A program made the translations under genes and the position numbers. From Sandaracinus sp. (GTDB lineage Bacteria > Myxococcota_A > Polyangia > Polyangiales > Houyiibacteriaceae): 64,000 nucleotides of DNA. Location: positions 1 to 64,000 of the forward strand of contig PABA01000151.1 in assembly GCA_002699025.1 (NCBI GenBank), written 5' to 3'. Below, piece by piece: positions 5,714 to 35,808 of this stretch (positions are counted from its first letter, which is position 1; each line of letters opens with the position of its first letter). The notes under the pieces were generated by a model that searched no databases, was not told the origin of the DNA, and worked only from the letters and a program-made list of their open reading frames with translations.

Positions 5714-5968
5714 GAAGCCGAGCGCCTCGAGGTCCTTGCGCAGGGCCTCGCTCGGCGGCACCGCGCCCAGGTCGAGGTGACTCGCCAGCTCCCGCGCCGC
5801 GGCGCGCACCTCGATGCGCGTCGGCACGCTCGTGGCGTGTTCGCGCACGCGGCAGCGCGCCTCCGCCAGCCGCCACGCGGCGACGGCCAGCCCACCGCTC
5901 TCCTCCAGGATCGCGGCGTAGCCTCCGGGGTGCTGGGTCTTCTTCAGGAGCCACTCGATCGGTCGCAT
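5702..5968 (-). CDS. Small hypothetical protein
   Basis: An 88-residue soluble, probably helical protein starting Met-Arg-Pro-Ile-Glu-Trp-Leu-Leu-Lys-Lys. A GAGG lies just upstream of the ATG. One cysteine, no signal or membrane segment, and no recognised family. It is isolated: about 600 bp upstream carries no convincing gene and a repeat abuts its stop. Codon use agrees with its neighbours. Confidence 0.55.
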   Translation of the reverse strand: MRPIEWLLKKTQHPGGYAAILEESGGLAVAAWRLAEARCRVREHATSVPTRIEVRAAARELASHLDLGAVPPSEALRKDLEALGFPVL

Positions 5969-6571
5969 GATGCCTCGCCTTCGCTTCGTTCTTCCCTCCG
6001 CGCGTCCTTCTCGATGTGCGGATTGGACGCACCTCACCGTCGTGCCGTGACGCCCTGAAGCGTCGACACCGCCCTCCCGCGGGCAGGGGGATGGCCTCGC
6101 GGGTCGTCCGGGGCCGGGGCCTCGAACCGTGAGCGCAACGCGCTCGCCCTGATAGACGGGAAGAAGCGGCAGATCGTCAAATTTTCGACCCCCGACCCCC
6201 TCCCCACCTTGGGTCGTTTCTTCGCCGCGCCCCCGGCCGCGCCGACGGGCAGGCCTCGCCCTCGGAAGCCCGAAAGCGTCATCTTTTCGATGGGATGGCG
6301 CGCCTGAACGCAGGGCCCGGGCACCGGCCGAGGCGCCTCCGCGGCCACGAATTCGACGGATCGAGCCGCTCGTCCGGCCCGCTTCGGCGCCGTACGACGC
6401 GCGATACGGGAAGCGCCGCCCCGAGATGCGGACGGTGCCCCTGCTCCGCACACCGCTCCAGCGAGCGGGTCCACGACGGGCCGCGAGCAGACCGAATCCG
6501 AGCCGAGCCCAGGCTGGGGGCCTGGGCCGGACGGCGCGCACGAGTCCCGGTCCGAGCCCCGAGCCGAGCCG
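5969..6571. other. Intergenic region, no gene found
   Basis: About 600 bp between two minus-strand genes. Open frames here have arginine/proline-rich shadow composition and none resembles a protein family. I see no RNA-gene signature or strong hairpin. It presumably contains the promoter of the small gene at 5702-5968. Confidence 0.4.
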
Positions 6572-8641: not shown

Positions 8642-10087
8642 TCAGCCGAGCCCATCGACGCAGACGTACTTCAGCTCGGTCCAGTCGTCGACGCCGTGCC
8701 GCGAGCCCTCGCGCCCGAGCCCGCTCTCCTTGATGCCCCCGAAGGGCGCCACCGTCGTCGACACGAGCCCCGTGTTCACGCCGACCATGCCGCTCTCGAG
8801 CGCCTCCGAGACGCGCCAGATGCGCCCGACGTCGCGCGCGTAGAAGTAGGACGCCAGCCCGACCTCCGCGTCGTTGGCGATCGCGAGCGCCTCCTCCTCC
8901 GTCTCGAAGCGCACGACGCCGGCCACCGGACCGAAGGTCTCCTCGCGCGTCATCACCATCTCCGGCGTGACCCCGGTGAGGAGCGAGGGCTCGAAGAAGC
9001 TCCGCCCGAGCGCGTGCCGCCCGCCGCCGAGCTTCACCACCGCGCCCTTGTCCTTCGCGTCGCCGACGTGCCGCTCGAGCTTCGCCACGGCGCGCTCGTC
9101 GATCACCGGGCCCACGTCGACGCCGTCCTCGAGCCCGGGCCCCGTCTTCAGCGCGTCGATGCGCGCGGCGAGCTTCTCCACGAAGGCGTCGTGCACGCCG
9201 GCCTGCACCAGGATGCGGTTCGCCGCGACGCAGCTCTGCCCCGAGTTGCGGAACTTCGCCATCATGCAGCCCTCGACCGCCGCGTCGACGTCGGCGTCGT
9301 CGAAGACGAGGAAGGGCGCGTTGCCGCCGAGCTCGAGGCTGACGCGCTTGACCGTCCCGGCGCACTGCTCGAGGAGCGCCTTCCCGACCGCCGTCGAGCC
9401 GGTGAAGCTCAGCTTCCGCACCCGCGCATCGCTCGTGAGCACGCCGCCGATCGTCGGCGCGTCCTCCCGGTCGCCGGTGAGCACGTGGAGCACGCCCTTC
9501 GGCACGCCCGCCTCCTCGGCGAGGGCGGCGAGGGCGAGGGCCGAGAGGGGCGTCGCCTCGGCCGGCTTGATCACCATCGTGCAGCCCACGGCGAGGGCCG
9601 GACCGAGCTTCCGCGTGATCATCGCTGTCGGGAAGTTCCAGGGCGTGATCGCCGCGGTGACGCCGACCGGCTGGCGGAGCACGAGCAGGCGCGCGCCCTT
9701 CCGGTGCGCGGGGATGGTCTCGCCGTAGACGCGCCGGGCCTCCTCGGCGAACCAGGTCAGGAAGCTCCGCGCGTAGGCCATCTCGCCCTTCGCCTCGCGG
9801 AGCGGCTTGCCCTGCTCGCGCGTGAGCAGGTGCGCGAGGGCGTCCTCGTGCTCTTCCATGAGCGCGACGAGGCGGCGGAGGATCGCGGCGCGCTCGTCGG
9901 CGAGGGTGGCGCGCCAGGCGGGGAGGGCGGCCTCGGCGGAGGCGATGGCGGCGCGCGTCTCGGCCTCGCCGCAGCGGGGCACGCGCGCGACCTCCTCGCC
10001 GGTCGCCGGATCGGTCACGGGGAAGGTCGCGTCGGTGGGGATCCAGTCGCCGCCGACGTAGGCGCGGTCGCGGAGGAGCTCGGTCAT
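8642..10087 (-). CDS. gabD: NAD(P)-dependent succinate-semialdehyde dehydrogenase
   Basis: A 481-residue aldehyde dehydrogenase whose length and layout match GabD. It oxidises succinate semialdehyde to succinate, the last step of 4-aminobutyrate breakdown. Visible landmarks: Pro-Trp-Asn-Phe-Pro (substrate/NAD pocket), Lys-Pro-Ala-Glu, Phe-Thr-Gly-Ser-Thr-Ala-Val-Gly-Lys, catalytic Glu in Leu-Glu-Leu-Gly-Gly-Asn-Ala-Pro-Phe and catalytic Cys in Gly-Gln-Ser-Cys. The start at 10087 was preferred over 10108 because the family begins at Leu-Leu-Arg-Asp-Arg-Ala-Tyr-Val-Gly-Gly-Asp-Trp. No gabT is adjacent, so the in vivo aldehyde could be broader. Confidence 0.92.
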   Translation of the reverse strand: MTELLRDRAYVGGDWIPTDATFPVTDPATGEEVARVPRCGEAETRAAIASAEAALPAWRATLADERAAILRRLVALMEEHEDALAHLLTREQGKPLREAKGEMAYARSFLTWFAEEARRVYGETIPAHRKGARLLVLRQPVGVTAAITPWNFPTAMITRKLGPALAVGCTMVIKPAEATPLSALALAALAEEAGVPKGVLHVLTGDREDAPTIGGVLTSDARVRKLSFTGSTAVGKALLEQCAGTVKRVSLELGGNAPFLVFDDADVDAAVEGCMMAKFRNSGQSCVAANRILVQAGVHDAFVEKLAARIDALKTGPGLEDGVDVGPVIDERAVAKLERHVGDAKDKGAVVKLGGGRHALGRSFFEPSLLTGVTPEMVMTREETFGPVAGVVRFETEEEALAIANDAEVGLASYFYARDVGRIWRVSEALESGMVGVNTGLVSTTVAPFGGIKESGLGREGSRHGVDDWTELKYVCVDGLG

Positions 10088-10145
10088 GGCGGCGGCATCA
10101 TAGGGCACTCGGTGCGGTTCCGAAGCGCCGGGGCCGCGATGGCCG

Positions 10146-10343
10146 TCAGCGGCGCTCGAGGTCGCTTGGGGCGAGCGAGACCGTGCGGAGGACGCCGTCG
10201 ACGCTGCGCCAAGTGCAGCGGACGAGCTCGAAGGGGAGCTGCTGGTGCAGCTCGACGGTCATGACCGGGCCGCCGTCGCGCAGGCGGACCTCGGCGCCGG
10301 GAGACCAGCGGGGGCGGGTGGGGGCGTTCGGTTCTGTCGACAT
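10146..10343 (-). CDS. DUF2158-like small protein
   Basis: A 65-residue protein. The core Gly-Ala-Glu-Val-Arg-Leu-Arg-Asp-Gly-Gly-Pro-Val-Met-Thr-Val-Glu, then Val-Arg-Cys-Thr-Trp and a hydrophobic tail, match the YodC/DUF2158 pattern (G-x-x-V-x-L-K-S-G-G-P-x-M-T-V). That family forms small SH3-like barrels of unknown function. The ATG at 10343 sits just before the conserved core. It lies upstream of gabD on the same strand with a 58-bp gap. Confidence 0.65.
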   Translation of the reverse strand: MSTEPNAPTRPRWSPGAEVRLRDGGPVMTVELHQQLPFELVRCTWRSVDGVLRTVSLAPSDLERR

Positions 10344-26953: not shown

Positions 26954-27940
26954 TCAGAAGCGCGCGTAGAGGCGGCGGAGGAGCGCGGAGAGCTCGCCCT
27001 CGCGCTCGGGCGGCGTCGGCGCGAGGACCCCGTGCTCCTGGAGCACGCCGACCAGCTCGCGGGGCACGTGGCCGCCCCCGCCGACCACCGCGGCGTGGCC
27101 CGCGGGCAGCACCCGCACGTGCACGCGCTCGTCGGTGGCCATGCGCGCGTTCTCCTGCTCGTCGGTGCTGAAGACCAGGTCGTCCTCCACGCAGGCGCCC
27201 TCCTCGTCGCGGCGCCGGCAGGTGCCCGCCTCGTCCGTCACGATCTGCAGGTGCTCGCTCACGGCCGGGTGGAGCGGGCGCGGCTCCTGCCAGTAGGCCG
27301 AGCGTGGGTGGATCTCGACCCAGTTCGCGCCGGTCACGGCCTGGCAGACGGCGGTCGTGAAGCCGAGGGAGACCACGTGGAGCCAGGCCCAGCCGCAGTG
27401 GCGCGCGGCGTCGATGCCGGAGAAGGGTGACGAGACGGTCACCAGCCGCAGGTCGCCGGCCTCGGCGGGGGGCGGCTCGCCCATGCTCAGCGCGATGCGC
27501 GAGACCAGGCCGCCCTGGCTGTGGGCGAGCACGGTGATGCGCTGGCCGGGGAGCTCGCGGCGCAGCCGCTCGAGGCCGCGCTGGAGGTGCACGGCGGCGG
27601 CGCGCAGTGTGCGCCGGTAGTCGTAGTTGAAGCAGAGCGCCTGCTGACCGTGGAACTCGAAGACCTCGGCGAGGCGCTCGAACTGGCTGCCCGACGAGAA
27701 GCAGCCGTGCACGATCACGACGAGGGGTTGGTCCGGCTCGAGGGCGATGGCGTCGGGCTGATCGCCGGTGCACGCCGCGAAGCCCTCGAGCTCGAGGGGC
27801 GCGCGTGTCTCCTCGCCGGGCGCGCCGGTCGGCCCGGCGAAGCGCACGGGGGTGCTCGTGATGGTCGGCCCGCACCCCAGCGCGGCGGCGACGCAGAGCG
27901 CCGCGGCCGCGACATGGCACCGTCGCACGAACCAACCCAT
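26954..27940 (-). CDS. Lipase-like alpha/beta-hydrolase lipoprotein
   Basis: A 328-residue predicted exported lipoprotein. A twin-arginine-free signal ends in Ala-Ala-Leu-Gly-Cys (Cys23). The hydrolase fold shows Leu-Val-Val-Ile-Val-His-Gly-Cys-Phe (oxyanion loop His-Gly), nucleophile elbow Ala-His-Ser-Gln-Gly-Gly, and late residues Val-Leu-Pro-Ala-Gly-His-Ala that could supply the catalytic His. This resembles the triacylglycerol lipase/PGAP1-like group. Extra cysteine pairs fit a periplasmic or surface location. The substrate is unknown. Transcribed alone towards the hairpin at 26895-26930. Confidence 0.85.
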   Translation of the reverse strand: MGWFVRRCHVAAAALCVAAALGCGPTITSTPVRFAGPTGAPGEETRAPLELEGFAACTGDQPDAIALEPDQPLVVIVHGCFSSGSQFERLAEVFEFHGQQALCFNYDYRRTLRAAAVHLQRGLERLRRELPGQRITVLAHSQGGLVSRIALSMGEPPPAEAGDLRLVTVSSPFSGIDAARHCGWAWLHVVSLGFTTAVCQAVTGANWVEIHPRSAYWQEPRPLHPAVSEHLQIVTDEAGTCRRRDEEGACVEDDLVFSTDEQENARMATDERVHVRVLPAGHAAVVGGGGHVPRELVGVLQEHGVLAPTPPEREGELSALLRRLYARF

Positions 27941-28271: not shown

Positions 28272-29660
28272 TCAGTCCGGACAGGCGTCGAGCATGGCGC
28301 GGAGCTTCGCGCCCTGGGCCGCGTCGAGCATCCCGATCCAGGCGATGCGCCCCCGGAGGTGCTCCCGGAAGCGCGGGTGCTTCGTCCGGTTCTGCGCCGC
28401 GAGGCCGGTCTTCTTCGCGTTGTGCAGGAGGGCCCGGAGCCGGCGCCGCTCCTTCCGCGAGACGTTGGCCTTGCGGTTCACGGTGACGCCCGTGACCTCC
28501 TGCCGGCCGCCGCGCCGCATCACGCGCGTCTTGGCCTCGTTCACGACGAAGCCCTCGTTCTTCACGACGTCGCGCACGGCCTTCAGGAGGCGCCCGGTCT
28601 TGCGCGGGTCGTCGCTCGAGAAGGTCAGGTCGTCGGCGTAGCGCGTGTAGGCGAAGCCGAGGCTGCCGGCGAGGCCGCCCAGGCGCCGGTCGAGCGCGTA
28701 GCAGGCGATGTTCGTGAGCATGGGGCTCGTGCAGGCCCCCTGCGGGAGCACCCGTTCGCCGAGGGCGACGTGGAAGACCTTCCCGTCGAGCTCGGCCTCG
28801 ACGCGGGGCGGCTCGGTGCAGAGGAGGGCCATCACCGTGGCGACGGACTCCGGGTAGCCAAAGACGCTCCGGAAGACGCCCTTCACGCGGCGGAAGCCGA
28901 GCGTCGGGAAGAAGTCCTCGAGGTCGAGGTTCACGACGACGCGCTTGCTGACGTGCGGCGTCGCGTTCGACTTCACGCTCCGGCCGCGCTGGAAGCCGTG
29001 CACGGTGGGCTGGGGTCCGACCCTCTCGAGGACGTGGACGAGGATCCACTCCTGCGCGCGGCGGAGGTCCTTCTTGGGCGCGCTGATGTGGCGCAGGCCG
29101 CCGGTCTTCTTGGGGACGGAGAAGCGGTGGTAGTGCACGAGCGCCGCGGCGCGCCGGTGGTAGGTGAGCCAGCGGAGCTTCGGGAGGTCGATGCCCATGG
29201 CCTCGGCGAGGGCCTTCGGCGTGGCGATGGGGGGCGCGCCGAAGCGGACGCCGTCCGGGCTCGGCGTGTGGCTCTCGAGGCCGGCGCTGACGCCCTCGCC
29301 GGCGTGCCAGACGCGCTCCTTCTTCGCCGTCTCCCAGGCCTCGCGCCGCTGCTTCGCCTCGAGCTCGCGCTCGATCTTCGCCTTCGCCCGGCGCTCCTTC
29401 GACTCCTTCCAGCGGCGCACGCGCTCCTGCTCGAGGGCCTTCTGCGGGTCGGCGACGACGGTCGCCTTCTTCCGGAGCTGGGCGAGCTCGTACTCGAGCT
29501 CGAGCGTCTCCTTCACCTCGTCGTCCGGGTCCTCCGGGAGCGGCTCGCTCGAGGGCCAGAAGCCGAGCTCGCGCATGCGGGCGAGCACGAGCTCCTCGTC
29601 GGCCGACTCGACGAGCTGCTGGTAGAGGGCCTTCTTCTTCTCCTTCGGATCGTCGGCCAT
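28272..29660 (-). CDS. Retron-type reverse transcriptase
   Basis: A 462-residue RT. Residues 1-150 are a charged, mostly helical extension (long Lys/Glu/Arg coiled coil near 60-115), as in the known long myxobacterial retron RTs. The RT core starts near 165. Motif A is Val-Val-Asn-Leu-Asp-Leu-Glu-Asp-Phe (Asp246), then Leu-Pro-Gln-Gly-Ala-Cys-Thr-Ser-Pro (305-313), catalytic Tyr-Ala-Asp-Asp (341-344) and the retron-typical Val-Thr-Gly (389-391), followed by a basic thumb. There is no maturase/HNH domain, so it is not a group II intron. It lies immediately downstream of an msr-msd locus whose RNA it would bind and partly copy into branched msDNA. It probably works with the SWIM and ARM proteins encoded upstream in anti-phage defence. 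Confidence 0.93.
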   Translation of the reverse strand: MADDPKEKKKALYQQLVESADEELVLARMRELGFWPSSEPLPEDPDDEVKETLELEYELAQLRKKATVVADPQKALEQERVRRWKESKERRAKAKIERELEAKQRREAWETAKKERVWHAGEGVSAGLESHTPSPDGVRFGAPPIATPKALAEAMGIDLPKLRWLTYHRRAAALVHYHRFSVPKKTGGLRHISAPKKDLRRAQEWILVHVLERVGPQPTVHGFQRGRSVKSNATPHVSKRVVVNLDLEDFFPTLGFRRVKGVFRSVFGYPESVATVMALLCTEPPRVEAELDGKVFHVALGERVLPQGACTSPMLTNIACYALDRRLGGLAGSLGFAYTRYADDLTFSSDDPRKTGRLLKAVRDVVKNEGFVVNEAKTRVMRRGGRQEVTGVTVNRKANVSRKERRRLRALLHNAKKTGLAAQNRTKHPRFREHLRGRIAWIGMLDAAQGAKLRAMLDACPD

Positions 29661-29708: not shown

Positions 29709-29956
29709 CTCGGGAGGACGCGCCGACGGGGCGGGGCGTCTACGTTCCTTGCGGAGGACGAGGCCGTTCCACTGAATGGGAGCCGTGCCCCCCGTGAGCC
29801 CGGGACACCGGAGGTGTCGAACCAGCGAAGGGTGCGGGGGGCATGGCTCCCGTGGTGACGAACGGACTCGTGACGAATGTCGAGCAGCTCGGCCAGCACG
29901 GCGTAGCACCGTGCGGATGGCTAGACCCGGCGCCTTCGTCGGCGCGTCCTCCCGAG
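29709..29956 (-). ncRNA. Retron msr-msd non-coding RNA
   Basis: Read on the minus strand, the locus begins with a1 CTCGGGAGGACGCGCCGACG (29956-29937) and ends with its perfect 20-bp reverse complement a2 (29728-29709). Just after a1 comes TAGC, with the candidate branching G at 29921. The msr part has hairpins such as GCACGG/CCGTGC and GAGC/GCTC. The msd is a long hairpin: a 17-bp stem (29851-29835 with 29794-29778, one mismatch) capped by an inner GACACC-TCC-GGTGTC hairpin (29818-29804). The RT start is 48 bp beyond a2. Transcript ends were not determinable. Confidence 0.92.
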
Positions 29957-30002: not shown

Positions 30003-30152
30003 GCGGCCTTCGGCCCCGGCTCTCCGCCGTCCGCTGTCCGCTGTCCGTGACGCGGGCCCTTCGGCCTCGGCCGTCCGCCGTCCGCTCTCCGCTGTCCGTG
30101 ACGCGGGGCCTTCGGCCCCGGCTGCCTCCCGTCGGCCGTCCGCTGTCCGTGG
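30003..30152. repeat. Three 50-bp hairpin-bearing repeats upstream of msr
   Basis: Three tandem copies, period about 50 bp. Each has GGCCTTCGGCC-type hairpin sequence (best at 30106-30120, GGGGCCTTCGGCCCC) followed by a TCCGCTGTCCGTGACGC segment. They lie between the end of the SWIM gene (30307) and a1 of the retron RNA, so they would be transcribed upstream of msr if the locus is one operon. Confidence 0.8.
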
Positions 30153-30306: not shown

Positions 30307-31980
30307 TCACGCTTCCTCCTCCAGGCGGCGCATGTGCACCAGCCGGAGCGCGAGCATGTGCTCGCAGGGGCCCTTCGTGAGCTTGTGCTTCTCGAACTCG
30401 GCGCAGGTGCAGGTGGCCTCGATGATGCTGCCCTCGTGGTCCACGTGGAGGAGGGGGCGCACTCGCGCGCCGGCGCCGCGCACGCTGCCGCTGAGCTTGT
30501 AGCCGGTCTGCACCGGGCGCCGCGCGATGAGCCGCGCGCCCCCGGCCTCGAAGATCGCCCGCGCCGCCTTCGCCTTCGGGTCGGCCTCCTCGGCGGCGGC
30601 CTTCAGCTTCGCGAGCTCCTTCTTCGCGTCGAAGGGGCTGTGGAAGAGGTCCCGGTGCCGGTACACGCCGCCCGGAAGATCGACCATCGCCCGGCCGGCC
30701 TGGCAGAGGAAGCTGAGCGCGCTCTTCACGTGCTCCTCCCCGAGCCCGGTCGCCTCGGCGAGCTGCGCCGGCGTGGCGAAGCGCGGCGCGCGCAGCGCGT
30801 GGTAGGTCGCGGCGAGCTGGTCGGCGCTCACGTCGACCTTCCGGCTCAGGAGCGAGAAGCGGCTCTCGCCGGTCCAGTCGTTGTCGGTCCAGCCGCTCAG
30901 GCCGAGCGTGAAGGTCGCGTCGCCGAGGTCGCAGACCCAGATCGTCGGCATGCCGTGGCCGGCGAGGTACACCTCGGCTCCTTCGAGGCTCCCGACGAGG
31001 CGCTCGAGGATGCGCAGGCGCCGCCGGCCCCAGGTGCGGATCGTCTGCCGCTTCGGCCCCTCGTAGACGGCCGCCGGCGAGAGCTCGATCGCGTGCTCCC
31101 AGGGCTCGAAGACCACCTTGGCCCGCCGCCCCGGCTCGAGCTCCCAGCGGAGCGCCCGCGGCGAGGCCTTCGCCTTGAAGCGCCGCACGAAGCGCACGAG
31201 GTTGAACACGTCGATGGGCGCGAGCTCGAGCCGCGTCAGCCCCATGGCCATCACGCTCTGCACCTGCAGGAAGCCGCGCACCCACGACTCGGGCAGGTCG
31301 ATCTTCTTCTCCGCGTGCGTCCCGCCGCCCGAGGTCACGCTGAAGCCGCTCGGCGACACGTCGAAGCGCGTGTCGCGGTAGGAGCGCATGCGGTTCAGGT
31401 GCCGGTAGAGGCGCGTCGAGTAGTCGACGTTCGTCGTGCCGCACTCGAAGGCGTCGATCTTCCGGAAGAGGTCGTACTTCATCGCGAAGCGCCCGTAGCT
31501 GGACTCGTCGCGGCTGAAGGCCTCGAAGGCGAGCTCGTCCGGGTGGACGGTGATCACCGGGTCGAGGATCCAGTCGAGCTCGTACTGGTCGGTCCAGACG
31601 TGCTCGAAGTACTGGCGGCGCGCGGCGCGGAAGGGGGCGAGGCGTGCGCGGCGGCGCTGGCGGAGCTCCTCGAGGCGCGCCTCTTTCTGCTCGAGCTCGG
31701 CGCGGAGGTCTTCGCTCTTCAGGGCGAGCGATTGGAGGAACTTCCGGTCCTGCTCCTCGAGCCAGGCGCGGAACTCGAGCCGATCCTTCGGGCGGTACTT
31801 CAGGTCGCTCACGACGACCGCGTGGAGCGCGGCGAGCCCCTCGCGGACGACGAGCGGGCGGGCGAGGTCCCCCTCGAGGAAGCTCGGCTCGCGGAGCACG
31901 TTGGTCGCGAAGGCGACGCGGCTGTGGCCGAGGTCGCTCGCGATGCCGCTCGAGCCGGCGTACTTGAACTGGAGCTTCAC
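30307..31980 (-). CDS. Winged-helix/SWIM zinc-finger protein of the retron locus
   Basis: A 557-residue protein starting with GTG at 31980, which overlaps the stop of the ARM gene (GTGA). A coiled coil lies near residues 75-125 (Leu-Arg-Ala-Glu-Leu-Glu-Gln-Lys-Glu-Ala-Arg-Leu-Glu-Glu-Leu). A winged-helix-like segment is near 395-445 (Ala-Thr-Pro-Ala-Gln-Leu-Ala-Glu-Ala-Thr-Gly-Leu). The end is a SWIM zinc finger, Cys-x-Cys-x12-Cys-x-His (Cys524, Cys526, Cys539, His541), a nucleic-acid or protein-binding module. With the ARM protein and RT this is the accessory set I recall for type XIII retrons (WH-SWIM protein). It is either the effector or a regulator of it; which is unknown to me. Confidence 0.87.
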   Translation of the reverse strand: MKLQFKYAGSSGIASDLGHSRVAFATNVLREPSFLEGDLARPLVVREGLAALHAVVVSDLKYRPKDRLEFRAWLEEQDRKFLQSLALKSEDLRAELEQKEARLEELRQRRRARLAPFRAARRQYFEHVWTDQYELDWILDPVITVHPDELAFEAFSRDESSYGRFAMKYDLFRKIDAFECGTTNVDYSTRLYRHLNRMRSYRDTRFDVSPSGFSVTSGGGTHAEKKIDLPESWVRGFLQVQSVMAMGLTRLELAPIDVFNLVRFVRRFKAKASPRALRWELEPGRRAKVVFEPWEHAIELSPAAVYEGPKRQTIRTWGRRRLRILERLVGSLEGAEVYLAGHGMPTIWVCDLGDATFTLGLSGWTDNDWTGESRFSLLSRKVDVSADQLAATYHALRAPRFATPAQLAEATGLGEEHVKSALSFLCQAGRAMVDLPGGVYRHRDLFHSPFDAKKELAKLKAAAEEADPKAKAARAIFEAGGARLIARRPVQTGYKLSGSVRGAGARVRPLLHVDHEGSIIEATCTCAEFEKHKLTKGPCEHMLALRLVHMRRLEEEA

Positions 31981-34589
31981 TCGGCCGCCTCCGGGGCGGG
32001 CGGGGCGGCGTCGCTCCGCACGCGCAGGTCGGTCTCGATGGCCGGGTGCTTCGTCTGCAGCACGGCCAGCGCGTGGGCGACGCGTTCGAAGTCGCCGCGC
32101 GTGTGCGTGCGGAGGAGCTCGGCCATCAGCCCGGCCGCGAATTGCGCCTGGCGTTCGTCGCGGAGCCCGCGCCGGAGCAGGAGCTCGAGCACGCCCCACT
32201 TCAGCGCGCGGGAGGGCCAGGTGTCGAAGAGCACGGCGCGGAAGTAGCCCTCGAGGCGCGCGAGGGGCACGAAGCCGTCGCGGAGGTGCGTCTGCATCAG
32301 GCCGAGGGCGAAGGCGCGCATGGCCCGGCTCGGGTGCTCGCTCAGCCGGTAGAGCACCTGCTCGGCGTCGAGCTCGTCGAAGTGGCGCACGACCAGCTCG
32401 CGGCCGAGGGCCTCGACCTCCTCGTCGTTCGAGTCGCAGAGGCCGACGAGGCCGTCCATGCCGAGGTGCTCGAGACCGACCTCGTCGCGGAGGAGCGCGA
32501 AGGCGACGTCGCGCGTGTCGTCCCACTCGCTCTCGGCGAGGGCGAAGAGCGGCGCGGGGTCGGCGCGGAGCGCCTCGACGTTCGCGCGGAGGAGGGCGTG
32601 GGCGGCGGCGCGGACGGCGGCGAGCTCGTCGCCCGCCATGGTCACGAGGCGCGGCAGGCCGAGCGCCTTCAGGCCCTCGGGGTGCGCGGCGAGGAGGGCG
32701 CCGGCGACGCTCCGACCGGCGGCCGAGCCCTCGTCGAGCCAGGCGAGGATCGCGTCGAGCTCGAGGCGGGCGCCGAGCTCGGCGACCAGGGCCTCGCGGG
32801 CGACGCGGGCGAAGCCGCCGTGGCGGTTCTCTTCGTCGGGCTGCTTCAGGATCGCGAGGAAGCCCTCGGCGTGGGCGGCGCGGAGGGCCGGGTCCGCGCG
32901 GAAGGCCTCGACGAGCGTGCGCGCGACGTGGTCGCGGAGCACCGGGTCGACGGCGAGGGGGAGCTGGAAGATGCTCCGCTCCTCGCGGGTCCAGGTCGGG
33001 GCGCTCTGGTCGAGCCAGCGTTGGGCGATGGCGCGCACGGCGGGGTGGCCCGACTGGGGGTGCATGAGCAAGCGCGCGAGGAGGCCGAGGTCCGGGCGGG
33101 CCGGGTCGAAGCGGCGGTCGAGCTCGGCGCAGACCTTCTCGACGAGCGGCGTGCCGGCCGTGAACTCCTCGGGGGCGCCCAGGAGGCCGAGGAGCTGGGC
33201 GAGGCTGGCGTGGCGGAGGAGCTCCGGGTGGCGCTCGAGGCCCTCGAGGCCGAAGTGGAAGACGTCGGGGAGCTTCGCGCCCGTGAGCACGCGGAGGTAG
33301 GCCTCGCGACCCGCGTCCCAGAGCGCCGGGAAGCTCTCCTCGCGGCCCTGCTTCGGGCGGCCGACGACCGCGGGCGAGCGGTAGCGCCAGCGGAGCTTGC
33401 GATCGAGGACCAGCCGTTCGCCGCCGCCGAAGAGGACGCGGCCGAGGAGGTAGCAGCGGCCGTAGGCGCCGACGAGGCCCTTGGGCGGGCGGAGGTCTTT
33501 TGGCGAGTAGTGCACGAGCACCTCGGCGGCCGTGCGCGCGTAGGCGGCGGGCTGATGGCGGGCGAGGTCGCGGAGGTGACGCCAGCAGGCGCGGCGCACG
33601 TACTGCTGCGTCTTCGGGGAGAAGACGGAGAGAGGCTTCTTCTTGCCGTCCCAGCCGCTCTTCAGGTTGGCGGTCGCACCGGGGCTCGTCAGCGCCGCGT
33701 GCTCGACGGCGTGGGCGAGGAAGCCGAAGGTCTTGGCGTCGCGCCGGAGCATGGCGCGCTTGAGGACACTCTTGGCGTAGCGCCAGACGTGGGGGCGCTC
33801 GATCTGCGCGCGGGCGAGGATGCGGCGCGCGGCGCCGACGGTGACCGGGGTGCCGGCCTCGTAGAGCACGTCGGCGACGAGGCCGAGGCGGCGCGGGTCG
33901 CCGGCGAGGGCGGCCTTCACGAGCGCCTTCACGTCCTCCTTCTTGCGGCTCTCCTCGTCCATGGCGCCGAGCACCTCGGCGACGGCGGGCGGGAGGCGCT
34001 GCAGGCCGCGCTGGCGGGCCGCGGCGAGGGCGGCGCGGAGCGTGTCGCGGGCGTCGTCCGGGAGCGCCTTCGAGCCGTGGAGGAGGCGGAGGGCCTCGAC
34101 GCCGCTCCGCCGCCGCGAGAGGTTCTTCTTCTCGGCGAGGGCGATGGCGAGGGGCAGGGCGCGCGGGTCGCCGAGGCGGGCGAGGCTCTCGACGAGGAGG
34201 CAGGCCTCGCCGCGCTTGCCGGCGACGGCGGCCTCGGCGGCGGCGTGCAGCGCGTCGGCCGCGTCCGTCTTCCCACGCCAGGCGCAGCGGAGGGCGGCGC
34301 GGCAGCGGGCGGCCGGGTCGCCGCCCTTCAGCGCGGTGATGAGATCCCAGCCGGGGACGAGCTCGGCGAAGCCCTCGTCCTTCAGCTGCTGGACGGCGAG
34401 GGCGAAGGGCTCCTGGGCCTGGTCGGCCGGGTAGGGGCCGTAGGAGGTGCCGCCGCCGAGCTGCGCGGCGGAGGGGCCGCGGGCGACGCGGACGAGGACC
34501 GTGCCCGGCGTCGAGGCCGGCTCGAGGGAGACGACGGCGACGCGGTCGTGGCCGCTCTGTCGGTGGAGCCGGACGGGGTCGATCTGCAC
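31977..34589 (-). CDS. ARM/HEAT-repeat protein of the retron locus
   Basis: An 870-residue protein from a GTG start at 34589. The N-terminal 90 residues form a strand-rich domain (Val-Ala-Val-Val-Ser-Leu-Glu, Thr-Val-Leu-Val-Arg-Val-Ala-Arg-Gly, Phe-Ala-Leu-Ala-Val-Gln-Gln-Leu) reminiscent of a WGR domain. The rest is about twenty ARM/HEAT-like helical pairs (for example Leu-Ala-Arg-Leu-Gly-Asp-Pro-Arg-Ala-Leu-Pro-Leu-Ala). It has no catalytic motif that I can see. It is the first gene of a tightly coupled pair with the SWIM gene (4-bp overlap) and is the expected ARM partner of a type XIII-like retron. Confidence 0.85.
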   Translation of the reverse strand: MQIDPVRLHRQSGHDRVAVVSLEPASTPGTVLVRVARGPSAAQLGGGTSYGPYPADQAQEPFALAVQQLKDEGFAELVPGWDLITALKGGDPAARCRAALRCAWRGKTDAADALHAAAEAAVAGKRGEACLLVESLARLGDPRALPLAIALAEKKNLSRRRSGVEALRLLHGSKALPDDARDTLRAALAAARQRGLQRLPPAVAEVLGAMDEESRKKEDVKALVKAALAGDPRRLGLVADVLYEAGTPVTVGAARRILARAQIERPHVWRYAKSVLKRAMLRRDAKTFGFLAHAVEHAALTSPGATANLKSGWDGKKKPLSVFSPKTQQYVRRACWRHLRDLARHQPAAYARTAAEVLVHYSPKDLRPPKGLVGAYGRCYLLGRVLFGGGERLVLDRKLRWRYRSPAVVGRPKQGREESFPALWDAGREAYLRVLTGAKLPDVFHFGLEGLERHPELLRHASLAQLLGLLGAPEEFTAGTPLVEKVCAELDRRFDPARPDLGLLARLLMHPQSGHPAVRAIAQRWLDQSAPTWTREERSIFQLPLAVDPVLRDHVARTLVEAFRADPALRAAHAEGFLAILKQPDEENRHGGFARVAREALVAELGARLELDAILAWLDEGSAAGRSVAGALLAAHPEGLKALGLPRLVTMAGDELAAVRAAAHALLRANVEALRADPAPLFALAESEWDDTRDVAFALLRDEVGLEHLGMDGLVGLCDSNDEEVEALGRELVVRHFDELDAEQVLYRLSEHPSRAMRAFALGLMQTHLRDGFVPLARLEGYFRAVLFDTWPSRALKWGVLELLLRRGLRDERQAQFAAGLMAELLRTHTRGDFERVAHALAVLQTKHPAIETDLRVRSDAAPPAPEAAE

Positions 34590-34773: not shown

Positions 34774-35808
34774 TCAGCCCGAGAGCGCGGCGCGGCGCTC
34801 GCGGACCATGCGCTTGTAGGGCCCCTTCAGGAGCGGCTCGAGGGCACGCAGGGCCGCGTCGTTCCCCATCGCCTCGGCGAGCTCGAGGGAGAGCTTCACG
34901 GCGTTCTTGTTCTTCGCCGCGCCCCACGCGGCGACCGCCTCCACGAAGCGATCGCGGTCCGCGACCAGGAGCGCGGCGGGCGCCCAGAGGCCCGGCGCCC
35001 GCGCCTTGCCGTCGCCGGCCCAGCCCTCCGCCGCGGCCGCGAGGGCGTCGACGGGCAGCGCCGCGAGGCCCGGATCCCCGGGCGCCGCGCGGAGCGCCTC
35101 CTCCGGCGCGGCGGGCGCCCACTTCGGAGGCTTCGCCTTGCCCGCGCGCTCGATCGGCCGCCCCGCCTCGAGCCAGGCCTCGGCGGCCTCGCGGGTCGGA
35201 CCGGCCGCGAGCTCGCCGAGGACGCCCGTGATCGCGTCCTCGTCGACCAGCCGCAGCGCCGCCGCCCCGGCCGCTCGATCGCGCGGCTTCTCCGCGAAGA
35301 GCAGCGGGAGCGCGCCGCGCGCGAAGGTCGCCGGATGCGCGCGGCGCCAGCGCCAGGCCTCGAGCGCCGAGCGCCCACCCACGGCGAGCCACCAGACCAT
35401 CACCTCCGCGACGTCGGTGTGGTCGACGCGCGCCAGCACTTCGGCGCCAACCTTCGGCACGGCGCCCGCGTAGCGGATCACGCCCGGGAGGGCGCGGGCG
35501 CCGAAGCGGTGGAGCAGCACCCAGAGCCCGCCCGACCACACGTAGCACCAGCGCTTCGGGTCGAGCTCCGCGAGCGCCTCGAGCGCGGCCCGCTCGCTCG
35601 CGTGGAAGAGGAAGTGGATGGGCAGCTCTTGCGCGTCCGAGGCGAGCCGCGCATCGTACCAGGCGGGCTCGCGGCCGGGCCAGCTGCTCTTGGTGACGTC
35701 GAGGTAGAAGGCGAAGTCCTCGTCGGGGAAGGCGAAGCGGGCCTCCGTGTCGAAGCGCGGCGCGGCGGGGCGCGCTCCCTCTCCCCAGGGCGGCGTGTCG
35801 CTCAACAT
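34774..35808 (-). CDS. Hypothetical HEAT-like protein upstream of the retron
   Basis: A 344-residue cytoplasmic protein. The N-terminal half is Trp/Tyr-rich (Phe-Pro-Asp-Glu-Asp-Phe-Ala-Phe-Tyr-Leu-Asp, Trp-Cys-Tyr-Val-Trp-Ser-Gly-Gly-Leu-Trp-Val-Leu-Leu). The second half has HEAT-like helices (Ala-Ala-Gly-Ala-Ala-Ala-Leu-Arg-Leu-Val-Asp). It recalls fragments of the WGR/DUF4132-type proteins of this phylum, but I do not assign a family. It is co-directional with the ARM gene with a 184-bp gap that contains three GGGTCGATCT repeats, so it may have its own transcript or be a fourth retron-locus gene. Confidence 0.6.
   Translation of the reverse strand: MLSDTPPWGEGARPAAPRFDTEARFAFPDEDFAFYLDVTKSSWPGREPAWYDARLASDAQELPIHFLFHASERAALEALAELDPKRWCYVWSGGLWVLLHRFGARALPGVIRYAGAVPKVGAEVLARVDHTDVAEVMVWWLAVGGRSALEAWRWRRAHPATFARGALPLLFAEKPRDRAAGAAALRLVDEDAITGVLGELAAGPTREAAEAWLEAGRPIERAGKAKPPKWAPAAPEEALRAAPGDPGLAALPVDALAAAAEGWAGDGKARAPGLWAPAALLVADRDRFVEAVAAWGAAKNKNAVKLSLELAEAMGNDAALRALEPLLKGPYKRMVRERRAALSG

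What the first reader, a model, noticed from the sequence alone, without database searches (positions are those of the whole stretch)
29709..29956. msr-msd with perfect 20-bp a1/a2 and a 17-bp msd stem
The inverted repeat CTCGGGAGGACGCGCCGACG (29937-29956 and 29709-29728, 208 bp apart) is exact. Inside, in the right order, are a TAGC with candidate branching G (29921), msr hairpins, and a long msd hairpin with an inner GACACC/GGTGTC loop. A 20-bp a1/a2 is long for a retron. The predicted msDNA hairpin (29778-29851) is about 74 nt; if reverse transcription runs beyond its base the DNA will be longer.
Basis: seen in the sequence. Interest (0 to 1): 0.85.

Follow-up and report, generated by a model that had tools for sequence, protein, structure and literature searches.

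The report
Template RNA of a type XIII retron
A bacterial reverse transcriptase operon carries, just upstream of its enzyme gene, a folded RNA that serves as primer and template for a small DNA; the folding is confirmed by dozens of compensating mutations in relatives, so this is a real but known kind of element (a retron, probably an anti-phage device).

Summary
On the minus strand, 29956-29709 is bounded by an exact 20-bp inverted repeat and lies 48 bp upstream of a retron-type reverse transcriptase gene (29660-28272). Upstream are a SWIM-domain gene and a HEAT/WGR-type gene, both in PADLOC's type XIII set. The RNA core (29925-29739) occurs in the same place in relatives from Myxococcota to Bacteroidota. 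In 21 sequences 40 of 54 pairs change on both sides (score 0.62; 0.10-0.15 when slid), and a model built without the window finds it at this place.

Corrections: the msd stem is 16 bp plus one mismatch and stands on a further conserved helix. A covarying 4-bp helix (TCTA|G with TAGA) next to the branch G puts the DNA start at about 29743. The predicted msDNA is about 125-140 nt, not 74. A 20-bp a1/a2 is normal here.

Verdict: new member of a known kind (type XIII retron).

More surprising things turned up in relatives: clade-C msr-msd elements occur alone or in tandem without a neighbouring reverse transcriptase, while some RT operons lack a template; and a tentative model gives the SWIM protein a PCNA-like fold. 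The window's own element is an ordinary cis copy.

The parts
28272..29660 (-). retron reverse transcriptase gene, 462 aa (YADD active site; NATPH and VTG motifs)
   Evidence: PADLOC RT_XIII E 2.9e-160; Pfam RVT_1 E 1.2e-22; PDB relatives are retron RTs Ec86, Ec67, Ec78
29709..29956 (-). msr-msd precursor RNA from a1 to a2, 248 nt
29937..29956 (-). a1 arm (exact 20 nt)
29709..29728 (-). a2 arm (exact complement of a1)
29922..29925 (-). 5' strand of the priming helix (TCTA), directly before the branch G
   Evidence: pairs with 29739-29742; 97.6% of cells paired, 3 of 4 pairs with changes on both sides (helix 1)
29921..29921 (-). candidate branching G (TAGC), 2'-OH primer
   Evidence: invariant in all aligned relatives; chemistry inferred
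29896..29914 (-). msr hairpin GCACGGTG-CTA-CGCCGTGC
   Evidence: 99.4% of cells paired (helix 3)
29855..29870 (-). basal msd helix, 5' strand (CGAG, CCGTTC, CAC)
   Evidence: 88% of cells paired, 8 of 13 pairs with changes on both sides (helix 4)
29759..29772 (-). basal msd helix, 3' strand (GTG, GAACGG, CTCG)
   Evidence: helix 4
29778..29851 (-). upper msd hairpin: 7 bp, A/C mismatch, 9 bp, conserved CTGG-containing bulge, apical GACACC-TCC-GGTGTC hairpin
   Evidence: helices 5 and 6 about 96-97% paired, all 16 pairs with changes on both sides
29739..29742 (-). 3' strand of the priming helix (TAGA)
   Evidence: helix 1
29743..29870 (-). predicted template of the msDNA: 5' end of the DNA opposite G29743, 3' end near or a few nt beyond 29870 (about 125-140 nt)
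   Evidence: inferred from the priming helix, the basal helix and the known geometry of retrons (PMC6868368)
30307..31980 (-). SWIM-domain protein gene, 557 aa, GTG start overlapping the stop of the upstream gene
   Evidence: PADLOC SWIM_XIII E 1.4e-184; start
31977..34589 (-). HEAT/WGR-type protein gene, 870 aa
   Evidence: PADLOC HEAT-ARM_XIII E 1.9e-119 and WGR_XIII E 2.6e-101

Best explanation
This is the msr-msd of a complete, cis-encoded type XIII retron: HEAT/WGR gene - SWIM gene - msr-msd - RT, all on the minus strand. Shown by sequence: the gene set, the RNA fold, its conservation and covariation. Inferred: the transcript folds on a1/a2 and on a second short helix (TCTA with TAGA) that places the 2'-OH of G29921 against template base G29743; the RT primes there and copies upstream through the long msd hairpin until about its base at 29870; RNase H trims the template. 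The product is a branched RNA-DNA of about 125-140 nt of DNA on about 60 nt of RNA. By analogy with tested retrons, RT plus msDNA holds the SWIM and HEAT/WGR proteins inactive as a guard complex, and phage tampering with the msDNA or its partners frees them to stop growth.
For: PADLOC type XIII hits for all three genes. Same gene order and intergenic RNA in relatives at 52-58% RT identity and in distant ones, including a Bacteroidota genome. a1/a2 differ in sequence between loci but stay complementary. Covariation: 34 of 60 pairs in a plain MAFFT alignment; 108 cells with two-sided changes on the unfitted 14-sequence alignment against 47.8 in shuffles; 40 of 54 pairs in the model-fitted 21-sequence alignment. 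Model R2, built only from clade-C loci, finds window 29739-29914 at E 9e-10 as its sole hit in 64 kb. RT open frames of close relatives stop at about 476-486 aa (some longer), so the RNA is not a conserved coding extension. Retron mechanism: PMC6868368, PMC12548924 (abstract).
Against: No msDNA or RNA data. No Rfam match, although no type XIII RNA family was seen in the results. The fitted alignment A10 leans to its own model. The defence role and the effector identity in type XIII rest on analogy only; no experimental study of type XIII was found in the library.
Confidence: 0.9

Rival explanations
1. The region is coding: the frame from GTG 30245 runs open through the msr-msd into the RT, so the repeat is part of a longer N terminus.
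For: The minus-strand frame is open from 30245 (657 aa).
Against: Open frames without genes are common at 74% GC. Close relatives' RT frames are mostly 476-486 aa; the core varies between 183 and 191 nt, not in threes; two-sided changes follow the stem, not codons.
Confidence: 0.02
2. A decayed or silent retron: the RNA and genes look right but no msDNA is made.
For: No expression data. The SWIM-to-msr gap is about 300 bp longer than in most relatives and holds a 51-bp tandem repeat.
Against: All three genes are full length, the active-site motif is intact, and the a1/a2, priming and msd helices are unbroken.
Confidence: 0.07
3. An intrinsic terminator, attenuator or mobile palindrome unrelated to reverse transcription.
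For: Strong inverted repeats between genes can be terminators.
Against: About 190 nt of conserved internal structure with invariant G, msr hairpin and primer helix; fixed position before type XIII RTs.
Confidence: 0.01

Closest known systems
Type XIII retrons (PADLOC RT_XIII / SWIM_XIII / HEAT-ARM_XIII / WGR_XIII)
   Same: All three protein families at E 1e-100 or better, gene order and adjacent msr-msd.
   Different: Only details: longer SWIM-to-msr gap with 51-bp repeats; PADLOC holds protein models, so the RNA model made here adds the template.
Experimentally characterised myxobacterial retrons Mx162, Sa163, Mx65, Ne144
   Same: Phylum, extended RT N terminus and similar overall transcript size (Mx162 precursor 241 nt, msr 71 nt; PMC6868368).
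   Different: Branch motif TAGC here, CAGC in Mx162/Sa163; predicted DNA about 125-140 nt against 162. No direct sequence comparison was possible.
Retron Ec86 (solved structures)
   Same: RT relative over residues 143-415, E 4e-42; same msr-msd logic.
   Different: Different effector genes and a much shorter msDNA.

Membership tests
retron (any type) | retron-type RT with YxDD and the retron NAxxH and VTG motifs | tested here: met
   YADD, NATPH and VTG present in the translation; nearest solved relatives are retron RTs
retron (any type) | msr-msd next to the RT, bounded by complementary a1/a2 | tested here: met
retron (any type) | conserved branching G at the inner end of a1 | tested here: met
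   G29921 invariant, next to a covarying helix; branching itself not shown
retron (any type) | production of 2'-5' branched msDNA | not testable with these tools
   needs expression and nucleic acid analysis
type XIII retron | RT of the type XIII family | tested here: met
   RT_XIII is the best of 64 PADLOC models, 532 bits against 388 for the next
type XIII retron | SWIM-domain and HEAT/WGR partner genes | tested here: met
type XIII retron | anti-phage function | not testable with these tools
   no experimental study of type XIII found
Mx162/Sa163 RNA group | RNA similarity to Mx162 or Sa163 | not tested
   no named sequence of these retrons was available; Rfam gave no match
sliding clamp fold (SWIM protein, residues 137-367) | fold of PCNA/beta clamp | tested here: inconclusive
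   VIA-align Z 13, rmsd 2.8 over 160 residues, but model pLDDT 58.6 and profile comparison with DnaN found nothing

The most novel reading that the evidence does not exclude
Type XIII retrons are a wider RNA-templated system than known: their msr-msd family includes solitary and tandem templates that RTs use in trans (clade C), and their SWIM protein is a PCNA-like clamp domain fused to a winged helix and a SWIM finger, so that the msDNA would control a protein aimed at replication or DNA ends. The window's retron is the cis-encoded form of this system.
Probability: 0.25. Interest if true: 0.8.

Novelty: new member of a known kind. Interest (0 to 1): 0.45.

Why it matters
The element itself is one more type XIII retron. 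What is useful is a tested RNA model: no type XIII template was matched by Rfam, and the covariation fixes the priming helix, the probable first and last template bases and hence a testable msDNA size. Type XIII appears to have no experimental mechanism in the papers searched. In the wider family the same kind of model shows templates separated from their reverse transcriptases, which, if they work in trans, breaks the rule that msr, msd and RT form one cassette.

Tried and rejected
Rfam at gathering and relaxed thresholds: nothing relevant. MAFFT alone misaligns the 3' side of the variable msd stem, so pair counts on A3 are low there; a covariance model was used for A10, which leans towards its own structure. 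Search for the SWIM protein in viral contigs: none. Neighbours 34774-35808 and 26954-27940 are not shared by other type XIII loci held here, so they were left out of the system. Literature: Mestre 2020 is not held, so the type definition is taken from the PADLOC models. Coding rival rejected (see rivals).

Full report
WHAT IS THERE. On the minus strand the window holds, in order, a HEAT/WGR-type gene (34589-31977), a SWIM-domain gene (31980-30307, its GTG overlapping the preceding stop), a structured intergenic RNA (29956-29709) and a 462-aa reverse transcriptase (29660-28272). The three proteins hit PADLOC's type XIII retron families: RT_XIII E 2.9e-160, SWIM_XIII E 1.4e-184, HEAT-ARM_XIII E 1.9e-119 and WGR_XIII E 2.6e-101. 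The RT has YADD and the retron motifs NATPH and VTG (the motifs as hallmarks are from general knowledge) and its solved relatives are retron RTs.

THE REPEAT. The 20-bp inverted repeat is exact at the stated positions. In 40 random sequences of the same composition one longer repeat occurred, so the repeat alone is not proof. The strand folds far better than shuffles, z -9.5. Rfam has nothing for it.

RELATIVES. A tblastn-type search of 145 genomes of the order found 46 with RTs of this kind, and a scan of named genomes added a Sandaracinaceae MAG, an unnamed bacterium, a Planctomycetaceae MAG and a Bacteroidota MAG (Marinifilaceae), among more distant RTs. Most of the 40-odd closer loci also encode the SWIM protein upstream, and the loci closest to the window the HEAT/WGR protein too. 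Between SWIM and RT, the loci closest to the window carry an inverted repeat of about 14-35 columns whose sequence differs from locus to locus while the arms stay complementary. So a 20-bp a1/a2 is normal for this group and lies inside the 8-30 bases given in the review PMC6868368.

THE RNA CORE. Between the inner ends of a1/a2 lies a core of 183-191 nt in all 14 loci compared. A plain MAFFT alignment of ten gave an RNAalifold structure with 34 of 60 pairs showing changes on both sides. On 14 core sequences the structure drawn from the window gave 108 two-sided cells against 47.8 +/- 5.4 in shuffles. On 21 sequences fitted to the model, 90.7% of cells pair, 40 of 54 pairs have two-sided changes, and the covariation score is 0.616 against 0.10-0.15 for slid versions; this alignment leans to its model. 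An independent check: model R2, made only from clade-C loci, finds window 29739-29914 minus as its one hit in the window, 52.9 bits, E 9e-10.

HOW IT PROBABLY WORKS. Helix 1 of the model (29925-29922 TCTA with 29742-29739 TAGA) sits directly before the branch G29921. It covaries (A-U, G-C and U-A at the position next to the G) and is followed on the 3' side by an invariant CG, so the first template base is most likely G29743 (inferred). The msd hairpin is not only the 29778-29851 stem: conserved helices 29870-29855 / 29772-29759 form its base (helix 4). Copying from 29743 to about 29870 gives 128 nt; with the usual 5-10 nt msr-msd overlap (PMC6868368) the msDNA is about 125-140 nt. The rest of the mechanism (guard complex released by phage) is analogy with tested retrons (abstract of PMC12548924) and is untested for type XIII.

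CONTEXT IN THE GENOME. The same genome has two further type XIII RTs (G000:C115 and C202). In an RT tree they fall into separate clades from the window's (B at 99/99 and C at 100/100 support). The three retrons are thus old, separate lineages in one cell. In clade A the RNA was found once per genome and beside its RT in the ten genomes checked, apart from a weak second hit in one genome and one strong solitary hit elsewhere (L147).

SIDE RESULT: TEMPLATES WITHOUT RT. Clade-C RNAs (model R2) were found in 20 of 284 genomes of the phylum. In G033, G043, G052 and G027 they lie alone or in tandem with no RT or SWIM gene in the roughly 5 kb of flank read (less where the contig ends), each with its own long a1/a2. 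In G052, G033 and G027 the clade-C SWIM stop is followed by the RT start after about 20-27 nt, leaving no room for a template. One solitary element is at a matching site in two species with 2 kb of flank at 89% identity. Fifteen such elements (nine loci plus a three-copy array in G209) have different msd stems that still pair in 98% of cells, all 29 stem pairs with two-sided changes (alignment fitted to the model). The simplest reading is that these templates are used in trans; that is inference.

SIDE RESULT: SWIM PROTEIN. A four-sequence AlphaFold model (pLDDT 58.6) matches sliding clamps in all top 50 PDB hits, VIA-align Z 13.0, rmsd 2.8 over 160 residues, model 139-365. Residues 169-243 of the model are below pLDDT 50 and no sequence profile supports the relation. 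It is a lead only.

VERDICT. New member of a known kind.

Noticed in passing
L221-L229 (G052, G033, G043, G027); L112, L113, L115: Clade-C msr-msd elements stand alone or in tandem, each with its own a1/a2 and no RT or SWIM gene in the flank read, while the SWIM-RT operons in L112, L113 and L115 have only about 20-27 nt between the genes and no template. Looks like retron templates working in trans.
   Followed up: partly
L141:9322-9520, 9702-9900, 9964-10163: Array of three tandem msr-msd with different msd stems, each with its own a1/a2 of about 15 bp or more, and no type XIII RT within about 9 kb.
   Followed up: partly
L230:5595-5793 and 5907-6105 (G062:C3): Two different tandem msr-msd between a SWIM gene and its RT: one RT with two templates.
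   Followed up: no
window 30307-31980 (SWIM protein residues 137-367): Low-confidence model matches PCNA and bacterial sliding clamps (Z 13); no sequence support.
   Followed up: partly
L093 (G000:C115) and L094 (G000:C202): Two more type XIII retrons of clades B and C in the window's own genome, each with a long a1/a2.
   Followed up: partly
window 30007-30151: A 51-bp GC-rich tandem repeat, 2.8 copies, between the SWIM gene and the msr; the gap is about 300 bp longer than in most relatives.
   Followed up: no
L147:9341-9529 (G362:C3): A strong clade-A type msr-msd (111.6 bits) with intact a1/a2 but no RT or SWIM in the 18 kb read; the genome's type XIII RT is on another contig.
   Followed up: partly
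L002:1275-2741: A second WGR-domain protein fused to a beta-propeller lies directly upstream of a type XIII operon.
   Followed up: no
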